A stretch of DNA of 64,000 nt from Luteimonas sp. MC1825 (lineage in GTDB: Bacteria; Pseudomonadota; Gammaproteobacteria; Xanthomonadales; Xanthomonadaceae). The position numbers and the translations under genes are program-made. The stretch lies in contig NZ_CP061714.1 of NCBI RefSeq assembly GCF_014764385.1, positions 2,356,001-2,420,000 of the forward strand, written 5' to 3'. The stretch's first letter is position 1. Every line of letters starts with the position of its first letter. This document shows, one piece after another, positions 973-62,295 of this stretch. Under the pieces are notes generated by a model. It saw only the letters and a program-made list of their open reading frames with translations, was not told the DNA's origin and searched no databases.

Positions 973-2679
973 TCAGGCGTCCTCGGTGACCCGCAGCACT
1001 TCCTCGATGGTGGTCATGCCGGCCATCGCCTTGATGATGCCGTCCTCGTACATGGTGCGCATGCCGGCGTCGCGCGCGAGCTGCTCGATCTCGCCCATGC
1101 CGGCATGGCGCATGACCGCGCGCCGCAGGGCGTCGTTCATCACCAGGAATTCCATGATCGTGGTGCGGCCGAGGTAACCGGTGGGGGCGATGGCCGAGGC
1201 ACGCGGGCGGTACAGGAAGATCTCGCCGTCGGGCTGGTACTTGCGCAGCGCGAACTTCTCGATCTCCTCCGGGGACGCCGGGTAGCGCTCCGCGTGCGTC
1301 GGCTCCAGGCGGCGCACCAGGCGCTGCGCAAGGATGCCGTTGATGGTGGAGGTGAGCAGGTAGTCCTCGACGCCCATGTCCAGCATGCGGGTGATGCCGC
1401 CGGCGGCGTTGTTGGTGTGCAGCGTCGACAGCACCAGATGGCCGGTGAGCGCCGACTGGATCGCGATGCGCGCGGTCTCGAGGTCGCGCATCTCGCCGAT
1501 CATGATGATGTCCGGGTCCTGGCGCACGATGGAACGCAGCGCGTGCGAGAAGTCCAGGCCGATCTGCGGCTTGGCCTGGATCTGGTTGATGCCCTCGATC
1601 TGGTATTCGACCGGGTCCTCGACGGTGATGATCTTGACGTCGGCGGTGTTGAGCTTGGAAAGCGCCGTGTACAGCGTCGTGGTCTTGCCGGAACCGGTGG
1701 GCCCGGTGACCAGCAGGATGCCGTGCGGCTGCTGCAGCACGGCCTCGAACTGCGGCAGGAAGTTGTCGGTGAAGCCGAGCTTGTGGAAGTCGAACACCAC
1801 AGTCTCGCGGTCCAGCAGGCGCATCACCACGCTCTCGCCGTGCGCGGTCGGCACCGTCGACACGCGCAGGTCCAGTTCCTTGCCCTGCACGCGCAGCATG
1901 ATGCGCCCGTCCTGCGGCAGGCGGCGCTCGGCGATGTTGAGCTTGGCCATGATCTTGATGCGGCTGATCACCGCCGCGGTGAGGTTGGTGGGCGGGCTTT
2001 CGCCCTCCTCCAGCACGCCGTCGACGCGGTAGCGCACCTTCAGCCGGTTCTCGAACGGCTCCACGTGGATGTCGGACGCGCGCAGCTCCACCGCGCGCTG
2101 GATCACCAGGTTCACCAGGCGGATCACCGGCGCCTCGCTGGCGAGGTCGCGCAGGTGCTCGACGTCGTCCATGTCGCCGTCGCCACCCTCCGCGGTCTCG
2201 ATGATCGCGCCCATCGCGCTGCGCCCCTGGCCGTACCAGCGCTCCACCAGGTCGGCGATCTCCGAGCGCAGCGCGACGCGCGCATGCACGTCCTTGCCGG
2301 TCGCCAGGCGCACCGCGTCCAACGCGTACGGGTCCTGCGGATCGGCCGCGAGCACCTCGACATGCGCATCGCCCTCCGCCACCGGAACCACGTGGAACTG
2401 CTTCATGAAGCGCGCGGTGAGCAGCACGCCCTCGGGCGGCAGTTCGGGCATGTCCTTGGCGCTCGCCAGCGGCAGCCCGAGCACCGCCGAACACGCTTCG
2501 GCGTGGTCGCGCTCCGACACCAGGCCGAGCCGGGTGAGCAGCGACAGCAGGCTGCCGCCGGTTTCTTCCTGCAGGCGCCGCGCGCGCGCCAGATCGGCAT
2601 CCTTCAGGCGGCCCTTCTCGAGCAGGGCGGCGACGATGCGCTCATCGGCGGATGCGGGGATCGTGACGGTGCTGTTCAC
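973..2679 (-). CDS. gspE: Type II secretion ATPase GspE (XpsE-like)
   Basis: This is the cytoplasmic hexameric ATPase that powers type II secretion. The 568-residue protein has an N-terminal T2SSE_N domain (about 10-130), then the secretion ATPase core with Walker A GPTGSGKTT near residue 325, an Asp-box around ITVEDPVEYQIEG, Walker B IIMIGEMRD and the His-box TLHTNNAAG. The start is GTG at 2679, with no better start nearby. The C-terminal region that carries a four-cysteine zinc site in many GspE/PilB proteins has no cysteine here; the segment reads LVRRLEPTHAERYPASP. gspF follows 2 bases downstream. Assignment to T2SS rather than T4P rests on the GspF partner and the XpsE-like N-terminus. 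Confidence 0.93.
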   Translation of the reverse strand: MNSTVTIPASADERIVAALLEKGRLKDADLARARRLQEETGGSLLSLLTRLGLVSERDHAEACSAVLGLPLASAKDMPELPPEGVLLTARFMKQFHVVPVAEGDAHVEVLAADPQDPYALDAVRLATGKDVHARVALRSEIADLVERWYGQGRSAMGAIIETAEGGDGDMDDVEHLRDLASEAPVIRLVNLVIQRAVELRASDIHVEPFENRLKVRYRVDGVLEEGESPPTNLTAAVISRIKIMAKLNIAERRLPQDGRIMLRVQGKELDLRVSTVPTAHGESVVMRLLDRETVVFDFHKLGFTDNFLPQFEAVLQQPHGILLVTGPTGSGKTTTLYTALSKLNTADVKIITVEDPVEYQIEGINQIQAKPQIGLDFSHALRSIVRQDPDIIMIGEMRDLETARIAIQSALTGHLVLSTLHTNNAAGGITRMLDMGVEDYLLTSTINGILAQRLVRRLEPTHAERYPASPEEIEKFALRKYQPDGEIFLYRPRASAIAPTGYLGRTTIMEFLVMNDALRRAVMRHAGMGEIEQLARDAGMRTMYEDGIIKAMAGMTTIEEVLRVTEDA

Positions 2680-2835: not shown

Positions 2836-3339
2836 ATGACGAAGACGATGCTCCTCCTGGCGACCATGCTCGCCCTGCCCACCGCGGCCCACGCCGGAAC
2901 CCTGCCGGCTCCGGATTCGCGCATCACCATGGCCGCGGGCGCCTGCCAGACCGCCCTGCCGGTGTTCGACGGCGTGGTCCGCAAGCGCCCGCTCGCGGTC
3001 CAGAACGAGGGCAGCATCACCACGTTCGTCACCTGCGGCATGGAGGGCAAGTTCTACGGCCAAGCGTCAAGCGCGATCGTGTTCGTCGCCCTGGTCAACA
3101 ATTCCAGCAGTCCGGCCACGGTGAACTGCACCCTCGTCGACGGCCGGAATGGTATGACGGATCCGCTCTACCGTCCCAAGTCGGTGGAGCTGGCCGCCAA
3201 CCAGCCGATCGCGGAACTGGTCTGGTCGAGCGCCGAGAACGAAGGCGAGAACTTCACGTACCCGGCGATCAGCTGCGCCCTGCCTCCCGGCACCGGCATC
3301 AGGGCCGTCGGCCAGGAGTTCCTGGCGCCCGCGCCCTGA
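2836..3339 (+). CDS. Secreted four-cysteine protein, family member 1
   Basis: I do not recognise a named family. The 167-residue product starts with a classical signal peptide (MTKTMLLLATMLALPTAAHA), giving a mature protein of about 147 residues. Four cysteines lie at 37, 67, 98 and 147, with the motifs FVTC, NCTLVDG and SCALPPG, and a region reading PLYRPKSVELA. Two genes at the far end of the window (60982-61533 and 61520-62056) share the same motifs and the same 30-residue spacing between the first two cysteines, so these are paralogs. Alternating hydrophobic segments suggest a small disulfide-bonded beta domain in the periplasm or outside the cell. The gene stands alone between gspE (divergent) and purL (convergent); the T2SS neighbour is suggestive only. 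Confidence 0.75.
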   Translation: MTKTMLLLATMLALPTAAHAGTLPAPDSRITMAAGACQTALPVFDGVVRKRPLAVQNEGSITTFVTCGMEGKFYGQASSAIVFVALVNNSSSPATVNCTLVDGRNGMTDPLYRPKSVELAANQPIAELVWSSAENEGENFTYPAISCALPPGTGIRAVGQEFLAPAP

Positions 3340-3363: not shown

Positions 3364-6300
3364 TCAGCCGATCGCCGCCCGCGCGTTGCGGAACATCCTG
3401 AGCCACGGCGATGCGCCAGGCCACGCGGCCGGCGCCCAGCTGAAGTTGGCCGTGGCAAGCGTGCGTTCGGGGTGCGGCATCATCAGCGTCACCCGGCCGT
3501 CGTCGCTGGTGAGTCCGGCGACGGCGGCATCCGAGCCGTTCGGGTTGGCGGGATACGCGATGGCCGGACGGCCATCGCCGTCGACGTAGCGCAGCGCGAC
3601 GCGCGCGGCCGACTGGGCGTCGGAGCCCGCGAATTCCGCGCGTCCTTCACCGTGCGACACCACCACCGGGATCCGCGAGCCGGCCATGCCGCGCAGGAAC
3701 AGCGACGGTGACTCGACCACTTCCAGCATCGACAGGCGCGCCTCGAACTGCTCGCTGCGGTTGCGCAAAAAGCGCGGCCAGTGCGTGGCGCCCGGCACGA
3801 TGTCCTTGAGCTGCGACAGCATCTGGCAGCCATTGCACACGCCCAGCGCGAAGCTGTCGCCGCGCGCGAAGAAGCGCTCGAACATGTCGCGCAGCGTGTC
3901 GCGTTCCATGATCGACGTGGCCCAGCCGCGGCCGGCACCCAGCACGTCGCCGTAGCTGAAGCCGCCACAGGCCGCGAAGCCGGCGAAATCGGCAAGCGTG
4001 GCGCGGCCTTCGACCAGGTCGCTCATGTGCACGTCGATCGCGTCGAAGCCGGCCAGGGAGAACGCGGCCGCCATCTCCACCTGGCCGTTGACGCCCTGCT
4101 CGCGCAGGATCGCCACGCGCGGCGCGGCACCGGTGGTGATGTACGGCGCGGCGATGTCCTGCACGGGATCGAAGCCGAGCTTCGGCTGCAGGCCCGGCGC
4201 GTCGAAGCGCAGCGTGGCCTCGCGCTCGGCGTCGGCGGATTCGGGATTGTCGCGCTGGCGCTGCATGGCGTGGCTCACCGACCACCAGGCCTCGATGAGC
4301 TCTTCCCACTTCCACTCGGCCAGCACTTCGCCGTCGGCCAGCACGCGCACCGCGGACGCGGTGGTCGGGCGCGCGATGCGCTGCGCGCATTCGACCAGGC
4401 CGTGGCGCGCGACCAGGTCGGCGAACTCGACGCGGTCGTCCGCGGCGATCTGCACCACCGCGCCCAGCTCCTCGTTGAACAGCGTGCGGAACACGTCCTC
4501 GGTGCGGTCGTCGCCCCAGGCATCGAGATCGATGTCGAGGCCGACGCGCGAGCAGAACGCCATTTCGCAGAGGGTGGCGAAAACGCCGCCGTCGGAGCGG
4601 TCGTGGTAGGCGTGCAGCAGGCCGGCTTCGCGCGCGGCACGGATCAGTTCGAAGAACTCGCGCAGGCGCTGCGGGTCGTCGAGATCCGGGCAGGCACCGC
4701 CGAAGGCGTCGTGGCACTGCGCCAGGATCGAACCGCCCATGCGCTGCTTGCCCGCGCCCAACCCGATCAGCCACAGCTCGGTGCCCGGCTCGCGCGAGAG
4801 CAGCGGCGTGAGCTGCCGGCGCACGTCGGCCACCGGCGCGAACGCGGTGACCACCAGCGACACCGGCGACACCGTCCGACGGGTCTCGCCGTCGGCCTGC
4901 CACTGCGCCTGCATCGACAGCGAGTCCTTGCCGACCGGGATCGAAAGCTCGATGTCCGGGCACAGCTCCATGCCCACGGCGTGCACGGCGTCATACAGGC
5001 GCGCGTCCTCGCCTGGATGCCCGGCGGCGGCCATCCAGTTGGCCGAGAGCTTGGTGCGCGCCAGCGACTCGACCGGCGCGGCGCAGAGGTTGGTGATCGC
5101 CTCGCCGACGGCCATGCGCGCGCTGGCGGCGGCATCGATCAGCGCCAGCGGCGTGCGCTCGCCGATCGCCATGGCCTCGCCCGCGTGGCCGTGGAATCCG
5201 GCCAGCGTGATGGCGCAGTCGGCCAGCGGCAGCTGCCAGGGGCCGATCATCTGGTCGCGCGCGGTGAGCCCGCCGACGCTGCGGTCGCCGATGGTGACCA
5301 GGAACTGCTTGGCGGCAACGGTGGGATGCGCGAGCACGCGCAGGCCGGCCTGGCGCAGCGCCTCGCCGGGCGTCTGGCCCGCGGCCAACGCACGCGCGTT
5401 GAGCTGTGGCCAGCGCGCGCCGGCGGTGCGCGCGGTGTCGCGATGCATCTTGGGCGTCTTGCCGAAGATCAGGTCCATCGGCAGGTCGATGGCGTGCGTG
5501 GCGTTTCCGGCGGGCGCGGATGGGGATGCGCCATACCCCACCACCAGGCGCTCCTCTTGCGTGGCGTGACCAACCACGGCGAACGGACAGCGCTCGCGCT
5601 CGCAGATGGCGGCAAACGCCTCGATGGCGTCCGGCGCGATGCCGAGCACGTAGCGTTCCTGCGATTCGTTGCACCACAGCTGCATCGGCGACAGCGAGGG
5701 GTCGTCGCTCGGCACGCGGTCGAGGTCGATCACCCCGCCCACGCCGGAATCGTGCAGCAGCTCGGGGATGGCGTTCGACAGGCCACCGGCGCCGACGTCG
5801 TGGCACCACTTGATCGGGTTGCCGTCCTCGCCGAGCGCGACGCAGCGGTCGATGACGTCCTGGCAGCGGCGTTCCATCTCCGGGTTGTCGCGCTGCACGC
5901 TGGCGAAATCGAGGTCTTCCGCGCTTTCGCCGGAGGCCACCGAACTCGCGGCGCCGCCGCCGAGGCCGATCAGCATCGATGGCCCGCCCAGCACCACCAC
6001 GGCATCGCCCGGCGCGAGCCGGCGCTTGGCCACCTGGACGCGGTCGATCGCGCCCAGCCCGCCGGCGAGCATGATCGGCTTGTCGTAGGCGCGCACCAGG
6101 CCATCGCCCTCCGCCAGCTCGAAACTGCGGAAATAGCCGGTGAGGTTGGGCCGGCCGAACTCGTTGTTGAACGCCGCCGCGCCCAGCGGACCCTCGGTCA
6201 TGATCTCGAGCGCCGAGGCCATGCGCGGATTGAGTTCACGCGGCTGCTCCCAGGGCTGCGGCAGCGACGGGATGCGCAGGTGCGAGACGCTGAAGCCCGC

Positions 6301-7305
6301 CAGCCCGGCCTTGGGCTTGCCGCCGCGGCCGGTGGCACCCTCGTCGCGGATCTCGCCTCCGGCGCCGGTGGAGGCGCCCGCGAACGGCGAGATCGCGGTG
6401 GGATGGTTGTGGGTCTCGACCTTGATGCAGAACGCCGAATCGCGCAGCGGCTCGGCGCGGTAGCGCCCGGTCCCGGGATCCGGGCGGAAGCGCTGTGCCG
6501 GATAGCCTTCCACCACGGCGGCGTTGTCGCTGTACGCCGACAGCGTGTGCTGCGGGGTCTGCGCGTGGGTGTGGCGGATCATCTTGAACAGCGTCTGCGC
6601 GCCGCCGTTGGCCGCGCCGCCATCGATGCGCATGTCCTGGCCGTCGATGGTCCAGCTGGCGTTGAAGATCTTGTGCCGGCAGTGCTCGGAATTGGCCTGC
6701 GCGAACATCATCAGCTCGACGTCGTGCGGGTCGCGGCCGAGCGCGGTGTAGCGTTCGCGCAGGTAGGCGATCTCGTCCTCGGCCAGCGCCAGGCCGAGGC
6801 GCTGGTTGGCGTCCTCGAGCGTGGCCAGCGGGATGACTTCGACGCTGCCGCGGGCCGGCGCGGTGAACAGCGCCGCGGCCTGGTCGTGGCTGTCGAGCAG
6901 CGACTGCGTCATCGGGTCGTGCAGGACGCGGGCCAGCGCGCGCGCGGCCACGGGATCGGAGGGCCAGCCGGCGATGTCGATGCGCGTGCCGCGCTCCACC
7001 CGGCGCACCGGCTGGCCGACGTCGCGCAGCAGTTCGCCGGCCTTGCTGGCCCAGGGCGAAATGGTGCCCAGGCGCGGTGCCACGTAGCGGCTGGTGGCAT
7101 CCGCAGTGGCGTCGGCAGTGCCGTCTCCGGCTTCGAGGATGCGATGCAGGATGGCGCGGTCGGGCGTGGCGCCCGCGACGGGCTCGACCCAATAGACGTG
7201 CCAGGCGCCGGTGACGCGGACGGCGGGGGCAATGGCCTGCAGGCGGGCCTGGAGGCGTTCACGCCGGAACGGCGACAGGGCCGGCAGGCCCTCGAGGACG
7301 ATCAT
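3364..7305 (-). CDS. purL: Phosphoribosylformylglycinamidine synthase
   Basis: PurL converts FGAR, glutamine and ATP to FGAM in de novo purine synthesis. At 1313 residues it is the large single-chain form typical of gammaproteobacteria. The N-terminal linker and PurS-like region is followed by two AIRS-type synthase halves (for example [20 protein letters not shown] and the ATP site [10 protein letters not shown]), then a class I glutaminase domain. In that domain GVCNGCQ carries the nucleophile Cys1157, and the C-terminal segment MMPHPERTL carries the catalytic His. The ATG at 7305 starts [15 protein letters not shown], the expected N-terminus. The gene looks monocistronic, with its stop 24 bases from the convergent secreted-protein gene. 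Confidence 0.97.
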
Positions 7306-58993: not shown

Positions 58994-59182
58994 GCGTCCT
59001 CTGCCGTGTTCGACGGCGCGCTCAAACATACGCCTTGTCCCTTAATGACGACCACGGGGGCGCGACGGAAGCCTGGCGCGCATGTCCGCCCACGAGCGGA
59101 AAGCCCGAAGGCCGCCAAGCGTCCCCACTTGAACCCCGGGTTCAAGGTCGTTTGGCTCGCATCGGCATGGTGGAGGACGTAT
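58994..59182 (+). ncRNA. ssrS: 6S RNA
   Basis: 6S RNA binds sigma-70 RNA polymerase by mimicking an open promoter and changes transcription in stationary phase. The call rests on position between zapA and the 5-formyl-THF cyclo-ligase gene, a length near 188 nt, and a clear terminal stem. Bases 58995-59008 (CGTCCTCTGCCGTG) pair with 59166-59179 (CATGGTGGAGGACG) through 13 of 14 positions if G-U pairs are allowed. A good -10 box precedes it. The interior is expected to hold the open bubble; I did not fold it fully. No open reading frame explains this interval. Confidence 0.85.
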
Positions 59183-60981: not shown

Positions 60982-61533
60982 TCAGGCCCCGACATCCTCG
61001 TCGTAGGCCACAGTGATGTAATGCAGCGCGGCACCCGGGGTGAGCATGCACTGCACCGCGGGCTGGTAGATCAGCTCCGGACCACCTGCGATCTCGCTGG
61101 GCTCCCACGGCAGTGGTGTGCCGACCGTCCCGGCAAACATGCTGACCGACTTGGTTCGATAGACCGCATCCGACTGGTCACCCAGCTGACTCCCTTCCAC
61201 GAACGTGCAGCTCACGTTGGCGGTCGCCGAGCCGACATTGCCCACGTGGGCCACCAGCCTCGTTGCGCCTCGCCCACCGGCACGTGGATCACCGCGGAAC
61301 GTGCACGTCACGAATGACGGGCCCGCGCCTTCGTTCACGAGGCCGAGGGGCCGCGCGCGCAGCGACTCTGCGTGCTGTGACAGCGCGGGTTGGCAGATTC
61401 CTGCCGCGCCCTGGATGTCATAGCGGTAGATCTCAGCGGCTGACAGCGAGTTGGATGCAGGAACCGCGGCCAGGAGGGCGAGGGATGCGGCGATCAAGGC
61501 GGGTCGCAGCCCGCAAGACTCAGGCGCCGACAT
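60982..61533 (-). CDS. Secreted four-cysteine protein, family member 2
   Basis: The function is unknown. The 183-residue precursor has a hydrophobic signal segment (LIAASLALLAAVPASNSLSA). The mature domain has cysteines at 47, 77, 109 and 162. Shared motifs with the other two members are QGAAGIC, ARPLGLVNEG, SFVTC, VSCTFVEG, YRTKSVSM, WEPSEI and CMLTPG. The C-terminal YDEDVGA is almost identical to the YNEDVGA of its neighbour. The ATG at 61533 lies within the last codons of the upstream paralog, a 14-base overlap; a TTG at 61497 is a possible alternative start. An extra cysteine (Cys7) precedes the hydrophobic segment and is not part of a lipobox. Confidence 0.72.
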   Translation of the reverse strand: MSAPESCGLRPALIAASLALLAAVPASNSLSAAEIYRYDIQGAAGICQPALSQHAESLRARPLGLVNEGAGPSFVTCTFRGDPRAGGRGATRLVAHVGNVGSATANVSCTFVEGSQLGDQSDAVYRTKSVSMFAGTVGTPLPWEPSEIAGGPELIYQPAVQCMLTPGAALHYITVAYDEDVGA

Positions 61534-62056
61534 CTTCGTTGTACTCGCGACCGGTGTACTGGATGGTGGACGACGGAGGCAGGATGCAGCTGAGCGACGG
61601 GCGATCGATGCCCGACGGCTTGGCATTCGAGACTTCCGAAGGAACCCAGGTGAGCTCCGCGCCGGCACCCGGTGCGATGCTGACGGTCTTTGGCACATAG
61701 ACCGCGTAGATAGAAACACCCGTCTGGTGCCCGTTCACCAGCGTGCACGTGTAGTCCTTGGCGGTGGTTCCGTTGTTGGTGATCGCGACGTACAGCCGCT
61801 TCGAGCCGCGGACCGAGTCCTGGTGGTCGTCGCCCTGCCAGTTGCAGGTCACGAAGATCTGGCCTTCGGACTCGTTGGCCAGGCCCAGCGGGCGGTATCG
61901 GGTCCCGGCGGCGAACGCCGCGGTCGCGGCCTTGCACATGCCGGAGGCACCCTGCACATCCACGCGAGGCAATTCGGCCGCACCGGCCGCCGCCGCACTG
62001 GCAACAAGGGCGAGGAACACCGGGGTCAACAAGTTGCGGGCACGGCGCATGAGCAT
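61520..62056 (-). CDS. Secreted four-cysteine protein, family member 3
   Basis: The function is unknown. The 178-residue precursor has a signal peptide (MRRARNLLTPVFLALVASAA, ending near AGAAEL) and a mature domain with cysteines at 41, 71, 104 and 157. Conserved motifs are QGASGMC, YRPLGLANES, IFVTC, TCTLVNG, YVPKTVSI, WVPSEV and SCILPPS, ending YNEDVGA. ATG 62056 was chosen; ATG 62050 and a TTG at 62065 are alternatives. It is the first gene of a two-gene tandem, overlapping member 2 by 14 bases, behind a plausible promoter at 62083-62111. The pair sits directly downstream of an rRNA operon. Confidence 0.75.
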   Translation of the reverse strand: MLMRRARNLLTPVFLALVASAAAAGAAELPRVDVQGASGMCKAATAAFAAGTRYRPLGLANESEGQIFVTCNWQGDDHQDSVRGSKRLYVAITNNGTTAKDYTCTLVNGHQTGVSIYAVYVPKTVSIAPGAGAELTWVPSEVSNAKPSGIDRPSLSCILPPSSTIQYTGREYNEDVGA

Positions 62057-62180: not shown

Positions 62181-62295
62181 CCCTGGCGATGACCTACTCT
62201 CGCATGCTAGATGCACACTACCATCGGCGCATGTACGTTTCACTTCCGAGTTCGGAATGGGATCGGGTGGTTCCATACAGCTATTGTCACCAGGG
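62181..62295 (-). rRNA. rrf: 5S ribosomal RNA
   Basis: Read on the minus strand, the gene starts CCCTGGTGACAATAGC and ends TCATCGCCAGGG, so its ends pair. Internal 5S landmarks are present, including ACCCGATCCCATTCCGAACT and GAAACGTACATGCGCCGATG. The length is about 115 nt. No tRNA follows it. The 170 bases between 5S and 23S show no other feature. Confidence 0.95.

What the first reader, a model, noticed from the sequence alone, without database searches (positions are those of the whole stretch)
60982..62056. New family of small secreted proteins with four cysteines in invariant spacing (three copies in the window)
Genes at 2836-3339, 60982-61533 and 61520-62056 encode signal-peptide proteins of 167-183 residues. 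The distance from Cys1 to Cys2 is exactly 30 residues in all three; Cys2-Cys3 is 31-33, Cys3-Cys4 is 49-53, and Cys4 lies 20-21 residues from the end. Shared motifs are RPLxxxNE, FVTC, CT(L/F)V(D/E/N)G, YxxKSV-like and CxLPP-like. Two copies are an overlapping tandem beside an rRNA operon and one sits next to the T2SS genes. I know no name for this family. Inference: two disulfides in a small beta-sandwich, possibly exported by type II secretion.
Basis: partly seen in the sequence, partly recalled or inferred. Interest (0 to 1): 0.75.

Follow-up and report, generated by a model that had tools for sequence, protein, structure and literature searches.

The report
Secreted four-cysteine proteins with membrane helper
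Three genes in this bacterial genome belong to an uncatalogued family of exported beta-sandwich proteins that, in many relatives, sit beside a gene for a membrane-anchored partner, which may help deliver them out of the cell.

Summary
In detail: three exported proteins with four cysteines at conserved spacing. The genome has six copies; one Luteimonas metagenome assembly has 17. No Pfam, NCBIfam or PHROG family matches them consistently. AlphaFold gives a confident all-beta model (pLDDT 89); the best PDB matches are mostly jelly-roll carbohydrate-binding modules, at fold-class level.

The larger finding lies outside the window. A second uncatalogued family, with an N-terminal membrane helix and a domain bearing C-x4-C, is encoded beside these genes across Lysobacteraceae. 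Of 36 partner hits (E <= 1e-5) in 203 genomes, 29 have a family member next to them on the same strand. The two families co-diverge. The partner model (pLDDT 91.5) has GspL as top PDB match, with PilO and GspM listed (weak E-values, no sequence similarity). The window's three copies are partner-less paralogs.

Best reading: T2SS clients with a dedicated membrane-anchored adaptor or chaperone serving several clients in trans. The pairing is shown; export route and role are inferred.

The parts
2836..3339 (+). Copy A, 167 aa: signal peptide plus four-Cys domain; lies between gspE and purL
   Evidence: own-genome hit 1.6e-19
60982..61533 (-). Copy B, 183 aa: four-Cys family member; its start overlaps the end of copy C by 14 nt
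   Evidence: own-genome hit 5e-33
61520..62056 (-). Copy C, 176-178 aa: four-Cys family member; modelled as an all-beta sandwich (pLDDT 89)
973..2679 (-). gspE, T2SS ATPase; end of the T2SS cluster that runs on outside the window to gspD
   Evidence: Pfam T2SSE 6.6e-144; cluster read
3364..7305 (-). purL, neighbour of copy A; also next to clients in G042 and G061 and next to a client-partner unit in G188
   Evidence: name recalled from the sequence
62181..62294 (-). 5S rRNA upstream of copy C
   Evidence: Rfam RF00001
62466..64000 (-). 23S rRNA, runs off the window
   Evidence: Rfam RF02541

Best explanation
The proteins are Sec-exported, cysteine-bearing jelly-roll proteins that leave the cell as clients of the type II secretion system. 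Their ancestral gene unit has two genes: the client and a partner protein anchored in the inner membrane by one N-terminal helix. The partner carries a long periplasmic helix followed by a small ferredoxin-like domain with a C-x4-C pair. The partner captures the folded client in the periplasm and presents it to the T2SS platform, acting as a chaperone or substrate adaptor. Clients multiply by tandem duplication and spread to new loci without the partner, and the few partners left in a genome (2 for 6 clients here) serve them in trans. Outside the cell the clients probably bind a ligand, perhaps a polysaccharide. Shown here: the client family, the partner family, their physical linkage, their co-divergence, and predicted folds for one member of each. 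Inferred: T2SS export, the handing-over step, service in trans, that the two-gene unit is ancestral, and ligand binding.
For: Linkage seen from the client: 29 of 85 distinct client genes with at least 1200 nt of flank have a partner within 600 nt, and all 29 are on the same strand. Linkage seen from the partner: of 36 partner hits at E <= 1e-5 in 203 family genomes, 29 have a client gene beside them on the same strand; 11 of those genomes had no client in the earlier client search, so the partner led to it. Co-occurrence: strong, full-domain partner hits fall in 6 of 61 genomes, all six client-bearing. Co-divergence: r = 0.825 over 42 pairs; 0.57, 0.49 and 0.45 over 31, 26 and 22 pairs after removing similar clients, reached in 0 of 5000 shuffles each. 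Topology: membrane-helix-like stretch in 19 of 22 partners. Fold: partner model pLDDT 91.5; PDB rank 1 is the T2SS inner-membrane protein of the pullulanase system, PulL/GspL (5hl8, prob 0.97), with PilO at rank 5, XcpY (GspL) at 21 and 27, and PulM (GspM) at 33. I had written down a GspM/PilO-like topology before that search (note). Place: client genes sit in or beside the T2SS cluster in G000, G061, G042 (one between gspE and gspF) and G021 (with partner, next to gspD). A known class works this way: T2SS chaperones are encoded next to their effector, have an N-terminal membrane helix and a periplasmic domain, and LipB of P. [quoted passage not shown]
Against: No direct evidence of export. 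All partner fold matches have E of 0.026 or worse, de novo designed proteins rank 2, 3 and 6, and there is no profile similarity to the GspL or GspM of these genomes, so the fold may be a generic ferredoxin-like one. Most clients have no partner nearby (56 of 85 none within 600 nt). Some partners have no client nearby (7 of 36), including one in this genome (L142). G005 has a weak client hit and no partner. T2SS proximity was noticed after the fact in a few genomes. gspD is above the curated cut-off in 10 of 10 client-bearing genomes tested, but no client-free relative was tested, so presence does not discriminate. The jelly-roll match is at fold-class level only. Species relatedness was not removed from the co-divergence test.
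Confidence: 0.42

Rival explanations
1. Periplasmic or cell-surface proteins with a membrane-anchored partner, not exported by T2SS: the partner holds or regulates the four-Cys protein in the periplasm (for instance as part of an envelope sensor or a cell-wall or pilus accessory).
For: Both carry export or membrane features. Units lie near mrcA-like genes in L112, L119 and L121, with a pilM-like gene beyond in L112 and L119 (names by recall). PilO is among the fold matches.
Against: Expansion to up to 17 divergent copies is unusual for a periplasmic regulator; several copies lie in or beside the T2SS cluster.
Confidence: 0.25
2. Secreted antibacterial proteins with a membrane-anchored immunity partner.
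For: Two-gene units, many divergent paralogs, tandem arrays, patchy distribution, and occasional partner genes without a client, as orphan immunity genes would be.
Against: Clients without a partner within 2.5 kb outnumber those with one (46 against 39 of 85; many loci had only about 1.5 kb of flank), which would be dangerous for a poison. Pfam, NCBIfam and PHROGs show no consistent toxin match for clients, and the client fold resembles binding modules. PADLOC was not searched.
Confidence: 0.12
3. Secreted inhibitors or accessory proteins of the cell's own extracellular proteases, with the partner as a chaperone.
For: In G103 two peptidase-like genes (M4 type, named from recall) lie between a client pair on one side and a partner with two clients on the other.
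Against: One genome only; no such genes were noticed at the other loci read; the M4 assignment was not tested.
Confidence: 0.1
4. The pairing is mere neighbourhood: two unrelated exported families that share hospitable intergenic sites.
For: Many unpaired copies of the client and some of the partner.
Against: 29 of 29 same strand, 29 of 36 partner loci with a client, and co-divergence reached in 0 of 5000 shuffles.
Confidence: 0.04

Closest known systems
T2SS effector/chaperone pairs (LipA-Lif/LipB, CpaA-CpaB)
   Same: Partner encoded beside the exported protein, one N-terminal membrane helix, periplasmic C-terminal domain; a helper can serve a second client elsewhere in the genome (PMC4713064, passages; PMC13381987, abstract and outline).
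   Different: Clients are small jelly-roll proteins, not lipases or proteases; the partner has no convincing match to the lipase chaperone model (1 of 22 members, E 0.057) and no SRPBCC match is listed; requirement for secretion untested.
GspL / GspM / PilO periplasmic domains (T2SS and type IV pilus platform)
   Same: Predicted topology of membrane helix, long helix and alpha-beta-beta repeat; best PDB match is GspL, and PilO and GspM are listed.
   Different: No profile similarity; weak Foldseek E-values; encoded with clients, not seen in the gsp operon; has a conserved C-x4-C.
Carbohydrate-binding modules with jelly-roll fold (CBM11, CBM16, CBM61, CBM4)
   Same: Six of the seven PDB matches with E <= 0.001 are such modules.
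   Different: Stand-alone protein with four conserved cysteines; TM-scores by query only 0.36-0.42 and 7-10% identity for those six; no CBM family among the Pfam hits.

Membership tests
Any catalogued protein family (Pfam-A, NCBIfam, PHROGs) | Match above the curated cut-off, or shared by several members | tested here: not met
   29 clients scanned in each library: hits in one or two members per family, best E 4.6e-4 in a single member; 7 divergent members in Pfam, one hit at E 0.17. 22 partners in Pfam and NCBIfam: at most 3 members per family, best E 2.9e-5 in a single member (DUF3375), nothing consistent; partners not scanned in PHROGs
T2SS chaperone class (as defined in PMC4713064) | Encoded adjacent to the exported protein | tested here: met
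   29 of 36 partner hits have a client beside them on the same strand; 29 of 85 clients have a partner within 600 nt
T2SS chaperone class (as defined in PMC4713064) | N-terminal transmembrane domain with periplasm-exposed C-terminal region | tested here: inconclusive
   Membrane-helix-like stretch in 19 of 22 by hydropathy; orientation inferred, not tested
[quoted passage not shown]
   Needs deletion mutants, secretome and expression data
GspL/GspM/PilO family | Sequence homology to GspL or GspM | tested here: not met
   hhalign probability 0.2 and 0.3 percent, on alignments of only 4 sequences each; PilO not compared
GspL/GspM/PilO family | Ferredoxin-like alpha-beta-beta periplasmic domain | tested here: inconclusive
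   Top Foldseek hit is GspL, E 0.026, TM-score 0.57 by target length; no match at or below E 0.001
Carbohydrate-binding modules | Jelly-roll beta-sandwich | tested here: inconclusive
   CBMs lead the list, but TM-scores are low and unrelated jelly rolls such as Eph receptor domains score alike
Carbohydrate-binding modules | Binding of a saccharide | not testable with these tools
   Needs a glycan array or pull-down

The most novel reading that the evidence does not exclude
Lysobacteraceae carry a spreading family of stand-alone jelly-roll secreted proteins, each lineage with a dedicated adaptor whose periplasmic domain mimics GspL/GspM. The adaptor docks on the T2SS platform and gives its clients access: a client-specific, evolvable recognition module for a secretion system whose substrate signal is unknown.
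Probability: 0.25. Interest if true: 0.78.

Novelty: new variant of a known kind. Interest (0 to 1): 0.55.

Why it matters
How the type II secretion system recognises its cargo is, to my knowledge (recalled), still open. A membrane-anchored protein with a GspL/GspM/PilO-like predicted fold, encoded next to and co-diverging with a family of small exported proteins, would be a simple two-gene handle on that question in environmental bacteria. The clients themselves are an uncatalogued family with up to 17 copies per genome and a predicted fold shared with ligand-binding modules.

Tried and rejected
Known-family membership: rejected. The PDB sequence profile gave only E >= 0.013 hits, among them a DUF4352 protein at 0.026, not pursued. 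For the partner, the PDB sequence search gave only E 0.54. The NCBIfam hit BamI (3 of 22 partners, best E 0.047) was followed into one paper search (listing only) and dropped as too weak. Partner remnants near the window copies: none convincing (best E 0.02, short unrelated stretches). A shared upstream DNA motif: the enriched words come largely from one set of orthologs, so dropped. Plasmid-borne relatives: none for three queries. A looser signal-peptide rule was not specific (56 of 62 members but also 25 of 53 control genes), so a stricter one was used. Client homologs outside the order are few and weak; the G1105 hit covers only positions 5-49 of the model and is not counted as a member. 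Relatives of G884: only G884 itself of 51 genomes. Literature: two searches aimed at such proteins listed nothing on this family by title or abstract start; that is not proof of absence. Searches looked for analogues. Disulfide pairing could not be checked: no model coordinates are laid in the Python box. Not every partner locus without a client could be judged: G090:C7 ends near the contig edge. A dN/dS comparison for the own-genome copy L004 was planned but printed no result.

Full report
OBSERVATION. The three genes are present as described. Copy A is at 2836-3339 (+), copy B at 60982-61533 (-), copy C at 61520-62056 (-). B begins 14 nt inside the end of C. Cys spacing is 30 / 31-33 / 49-53 / 20-21. 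Copy C finds B (5e-33), A (1.6e-19) and three more copies in the same 2.92-Mb genome, so the family has six members there. The genus is read as Luteimonas because named contigs (L. colneyensis, L. padinae, Luteimonas sp.) have the same lengths as contigs of same-genus genomes (lengths).

REALITY AND EXTENT. In 29 members from six genomes all four cysteines and one Asn are invariant, with the consensus R-x-R-P-L-A-x-x-N-E-G ... F-V-T-C ... C-T-x-V-x-G ... S-C-x-L-P-P-G. C1-C2 is exactly 30 in 25 of 29 and 28-31 in the rest. Orthologs of C and B in the nearest relative show dN/dS 0.11 and 0.22; copy A shows 0.48, but its dS is only 0.04 where four T2SS genes have 0.205-0.238. Client hits occur in 11 of 52 Luteimonas genomes, with 17, 16, 9, 7 and 6 matches in five of them; the two highest are assemblies of 88-89% completeness, and some matches in one of them are fragments. 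Further: 21 of 395 family genomes in 13 of 54 genera; in the order 4 of 299, all in the family; in the class 4 of 369, the three outside the order weak; in the phylum 1 of 299, the own genome. A wider profile of 62 rows (A5) gave 2 of 219 in the phylum, the second only over model positions 5-49. None of Pfam, NCBIfam or PHROGs has a consistent match.

A SECOND GENE. Reading the neighbours of copies elsewhere showed a recurring small gene: N-terminal membrane helix, Ala/Pro-rich linker, then a domain with D-P-A-W-A ... C-x4-C ... E-D-W ... P-D-G-x-x-x-V-x-I-Y. From the client side, 29 of 85 distinct clients with at least 1200 nt of flank have it within 600 nt, and 39 of 85 within 2.5 kb (a lower bound, since many loci hold about 1.5 kb of flank), always on the same strand; it is downstream in 20 and upstream in 9 of the 29. 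From the partner side, a search of 203 family genomes gave hits in 38 at E <= 1e-3. Of the 36 hits at E <= 1e-5, 29 have a client gene beside them on the same strand. One of these clients is in fragments (G188, L177) and one is weak (G180, E 7.6e-6). A part of the 29 had already been seen from the client side. The seven without a client are G090:C7 (near a contig edge), G000 at 2014657 (L142), G179, G200, G105, G181 and G246. In 11 genomes the partner led to a client that the first client search had not found: G075, G079, G080, G098, G127, G131, G155, G172, G180, G218, G234. In 61 relatives, strong full-domain partner hits fall in six genomes, all client-bearing; the other 11 genomes with hits show only E 6e-8 to 9e-4, mostly over the helix and linker.

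CO-DIVERGENCE. Over 42 adjacent pairs the distance matrices of client and partner correlate at r 0.825. With clients thinned to below 50, 40 and 35 percent identity, n is 31, 26 and 22 and r is 0.574, 0.488 and 0.446, reached in 0 of 5000 shuffles each. The same nearest neighbour is found in 19 of 42. Species relatedness was not removed from this test.

HISTORY OF THE WINDOW COPIES. In a tree of 101 clients (the set is enriched in paired copies because some loci were fetched through the partner) the B and C genes of the window, G061, G042, G054 and G006 form one group of ten (99/100). The C-position genes of all five group together (100/95); the B-position genes of four group together (100/87), while that of G006 falls at the base of the C side (98/73). 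In G006 the partner gene lies exactly between the two (L009); in the window, G061 and G042 the two genes overlap or abut without it, and in G054 a short gap holds none. No remnant was found near the window copies. Of the six own copies only one (L104) has a partner beside it; a second partner stands alone at another locus. So the window holds partner-less paralogs; whether the partner was lost there or gained in G006 is not settled.

T2SS. Copy A lies between gspE and purL. The cluster gspD-gspE is next to it; gspE, gspD, a PilN-domain GspL and GspM were checked with Pfam, the other gsp names are read by eye. In G042 two clients lie between purL and gspE and one between gspE and gspF. In G021 a client-partner unit lies beside gspD. 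In G188 the corresponding slot holds client-client-partner with no gsp genes, its gspD being on another contig. This was noticed after the fact and not surveyed systematically. gspD exceeds the curated cut-off in 10 of 10 client-bearing genomes tested; in the control genomes of that of 14 match and 2 exceed it.

FOLDS. Copy C with 14 relatives: all-beta, pLDDT 89.0, pTM 0.83. The seven PDB matches with E <= 0.001 are six carbohydrate-binding-module chains and one Cry1Da core; Eph ligand-binding domains follow, with TM-scores up to 0.54. This is fold-class similarity only. Partner (L091 periplasmic part with 7 relatives): long helix, two shorter helices, then beta-beta-alpha-beta-beta, pLDDT 91.5, pTM 0.77. 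Before the search I noted that this topology recalls GspM/PilO. Foldseek rank 1 is PulL/GspL (5hl8, E 0.026, prob 0.97, TM-score 0.57 by target), PilO rank 5, XcpY (GspL) ranks 21 and 27, PulM rank 33; designed proteins and other unrelated chains lie between them, and no match reaches E 0.001. Profile comparison with GspL and GspM of these genomes finds nothing.

MECHANISM. The best-supported reading is a client and a membrane-anchored helper of the kind called T2SS chaperones: encoded next to the effector, N-terminal membrane helix, periplasmic domain, needed for secretion, and able to serve a distant second client (PMC4713064, passages seen; LipH as example, PMC13381987, abstract and outline seen). 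A GspL/GspM-like domain would suit a protein that docks on the platform. Client numbers above partner numbers (6 to 2 here) fit service in trans and argue against a poison-antidote pair. Shown: families, linkage, co-divergence, predicted folds of one member each. Inferred: export route, contact, adaptor action, ligand binding.

Noticed in passing
window 2836-3339 against L149 17693-18196: Copy A differs from its ortholog at only 4 percent of synonymous sites while the adjacent gspE differs at 19 percent; recent exchange or an unknown constraint.
   Followed up: no
L142 6646-7284; also L143, L144, L085: A conserved partner gene lies near a lipoprotein/acyl-CoA dehydrogenase-like pair (names by recall); in L085 client genes are next to it, in L142 (own genome) and L143 they are not; in L144 the gene runs off the contig.
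   Followed up: partly
L109 4774-9262 (G103): A tandem array of seven family members on one strand with no partner found in the 14 kb fetched.
   Followed up: no
L110 8943-13292 and L146 (G103): Two adjacent peptidase-like genes (M4 type by recall) between a client pair and a partner with two clients.
   Followed up: no
L112, L119, L121: Client-partner units near an mrcA-like gene in three genera, with a pilM-like gene beyond it in L112 and L119 (names by recall).
   Followed up: no
window 58995-59180 (+): 6S RNA (Rfam RF00013).
   Followed up: no
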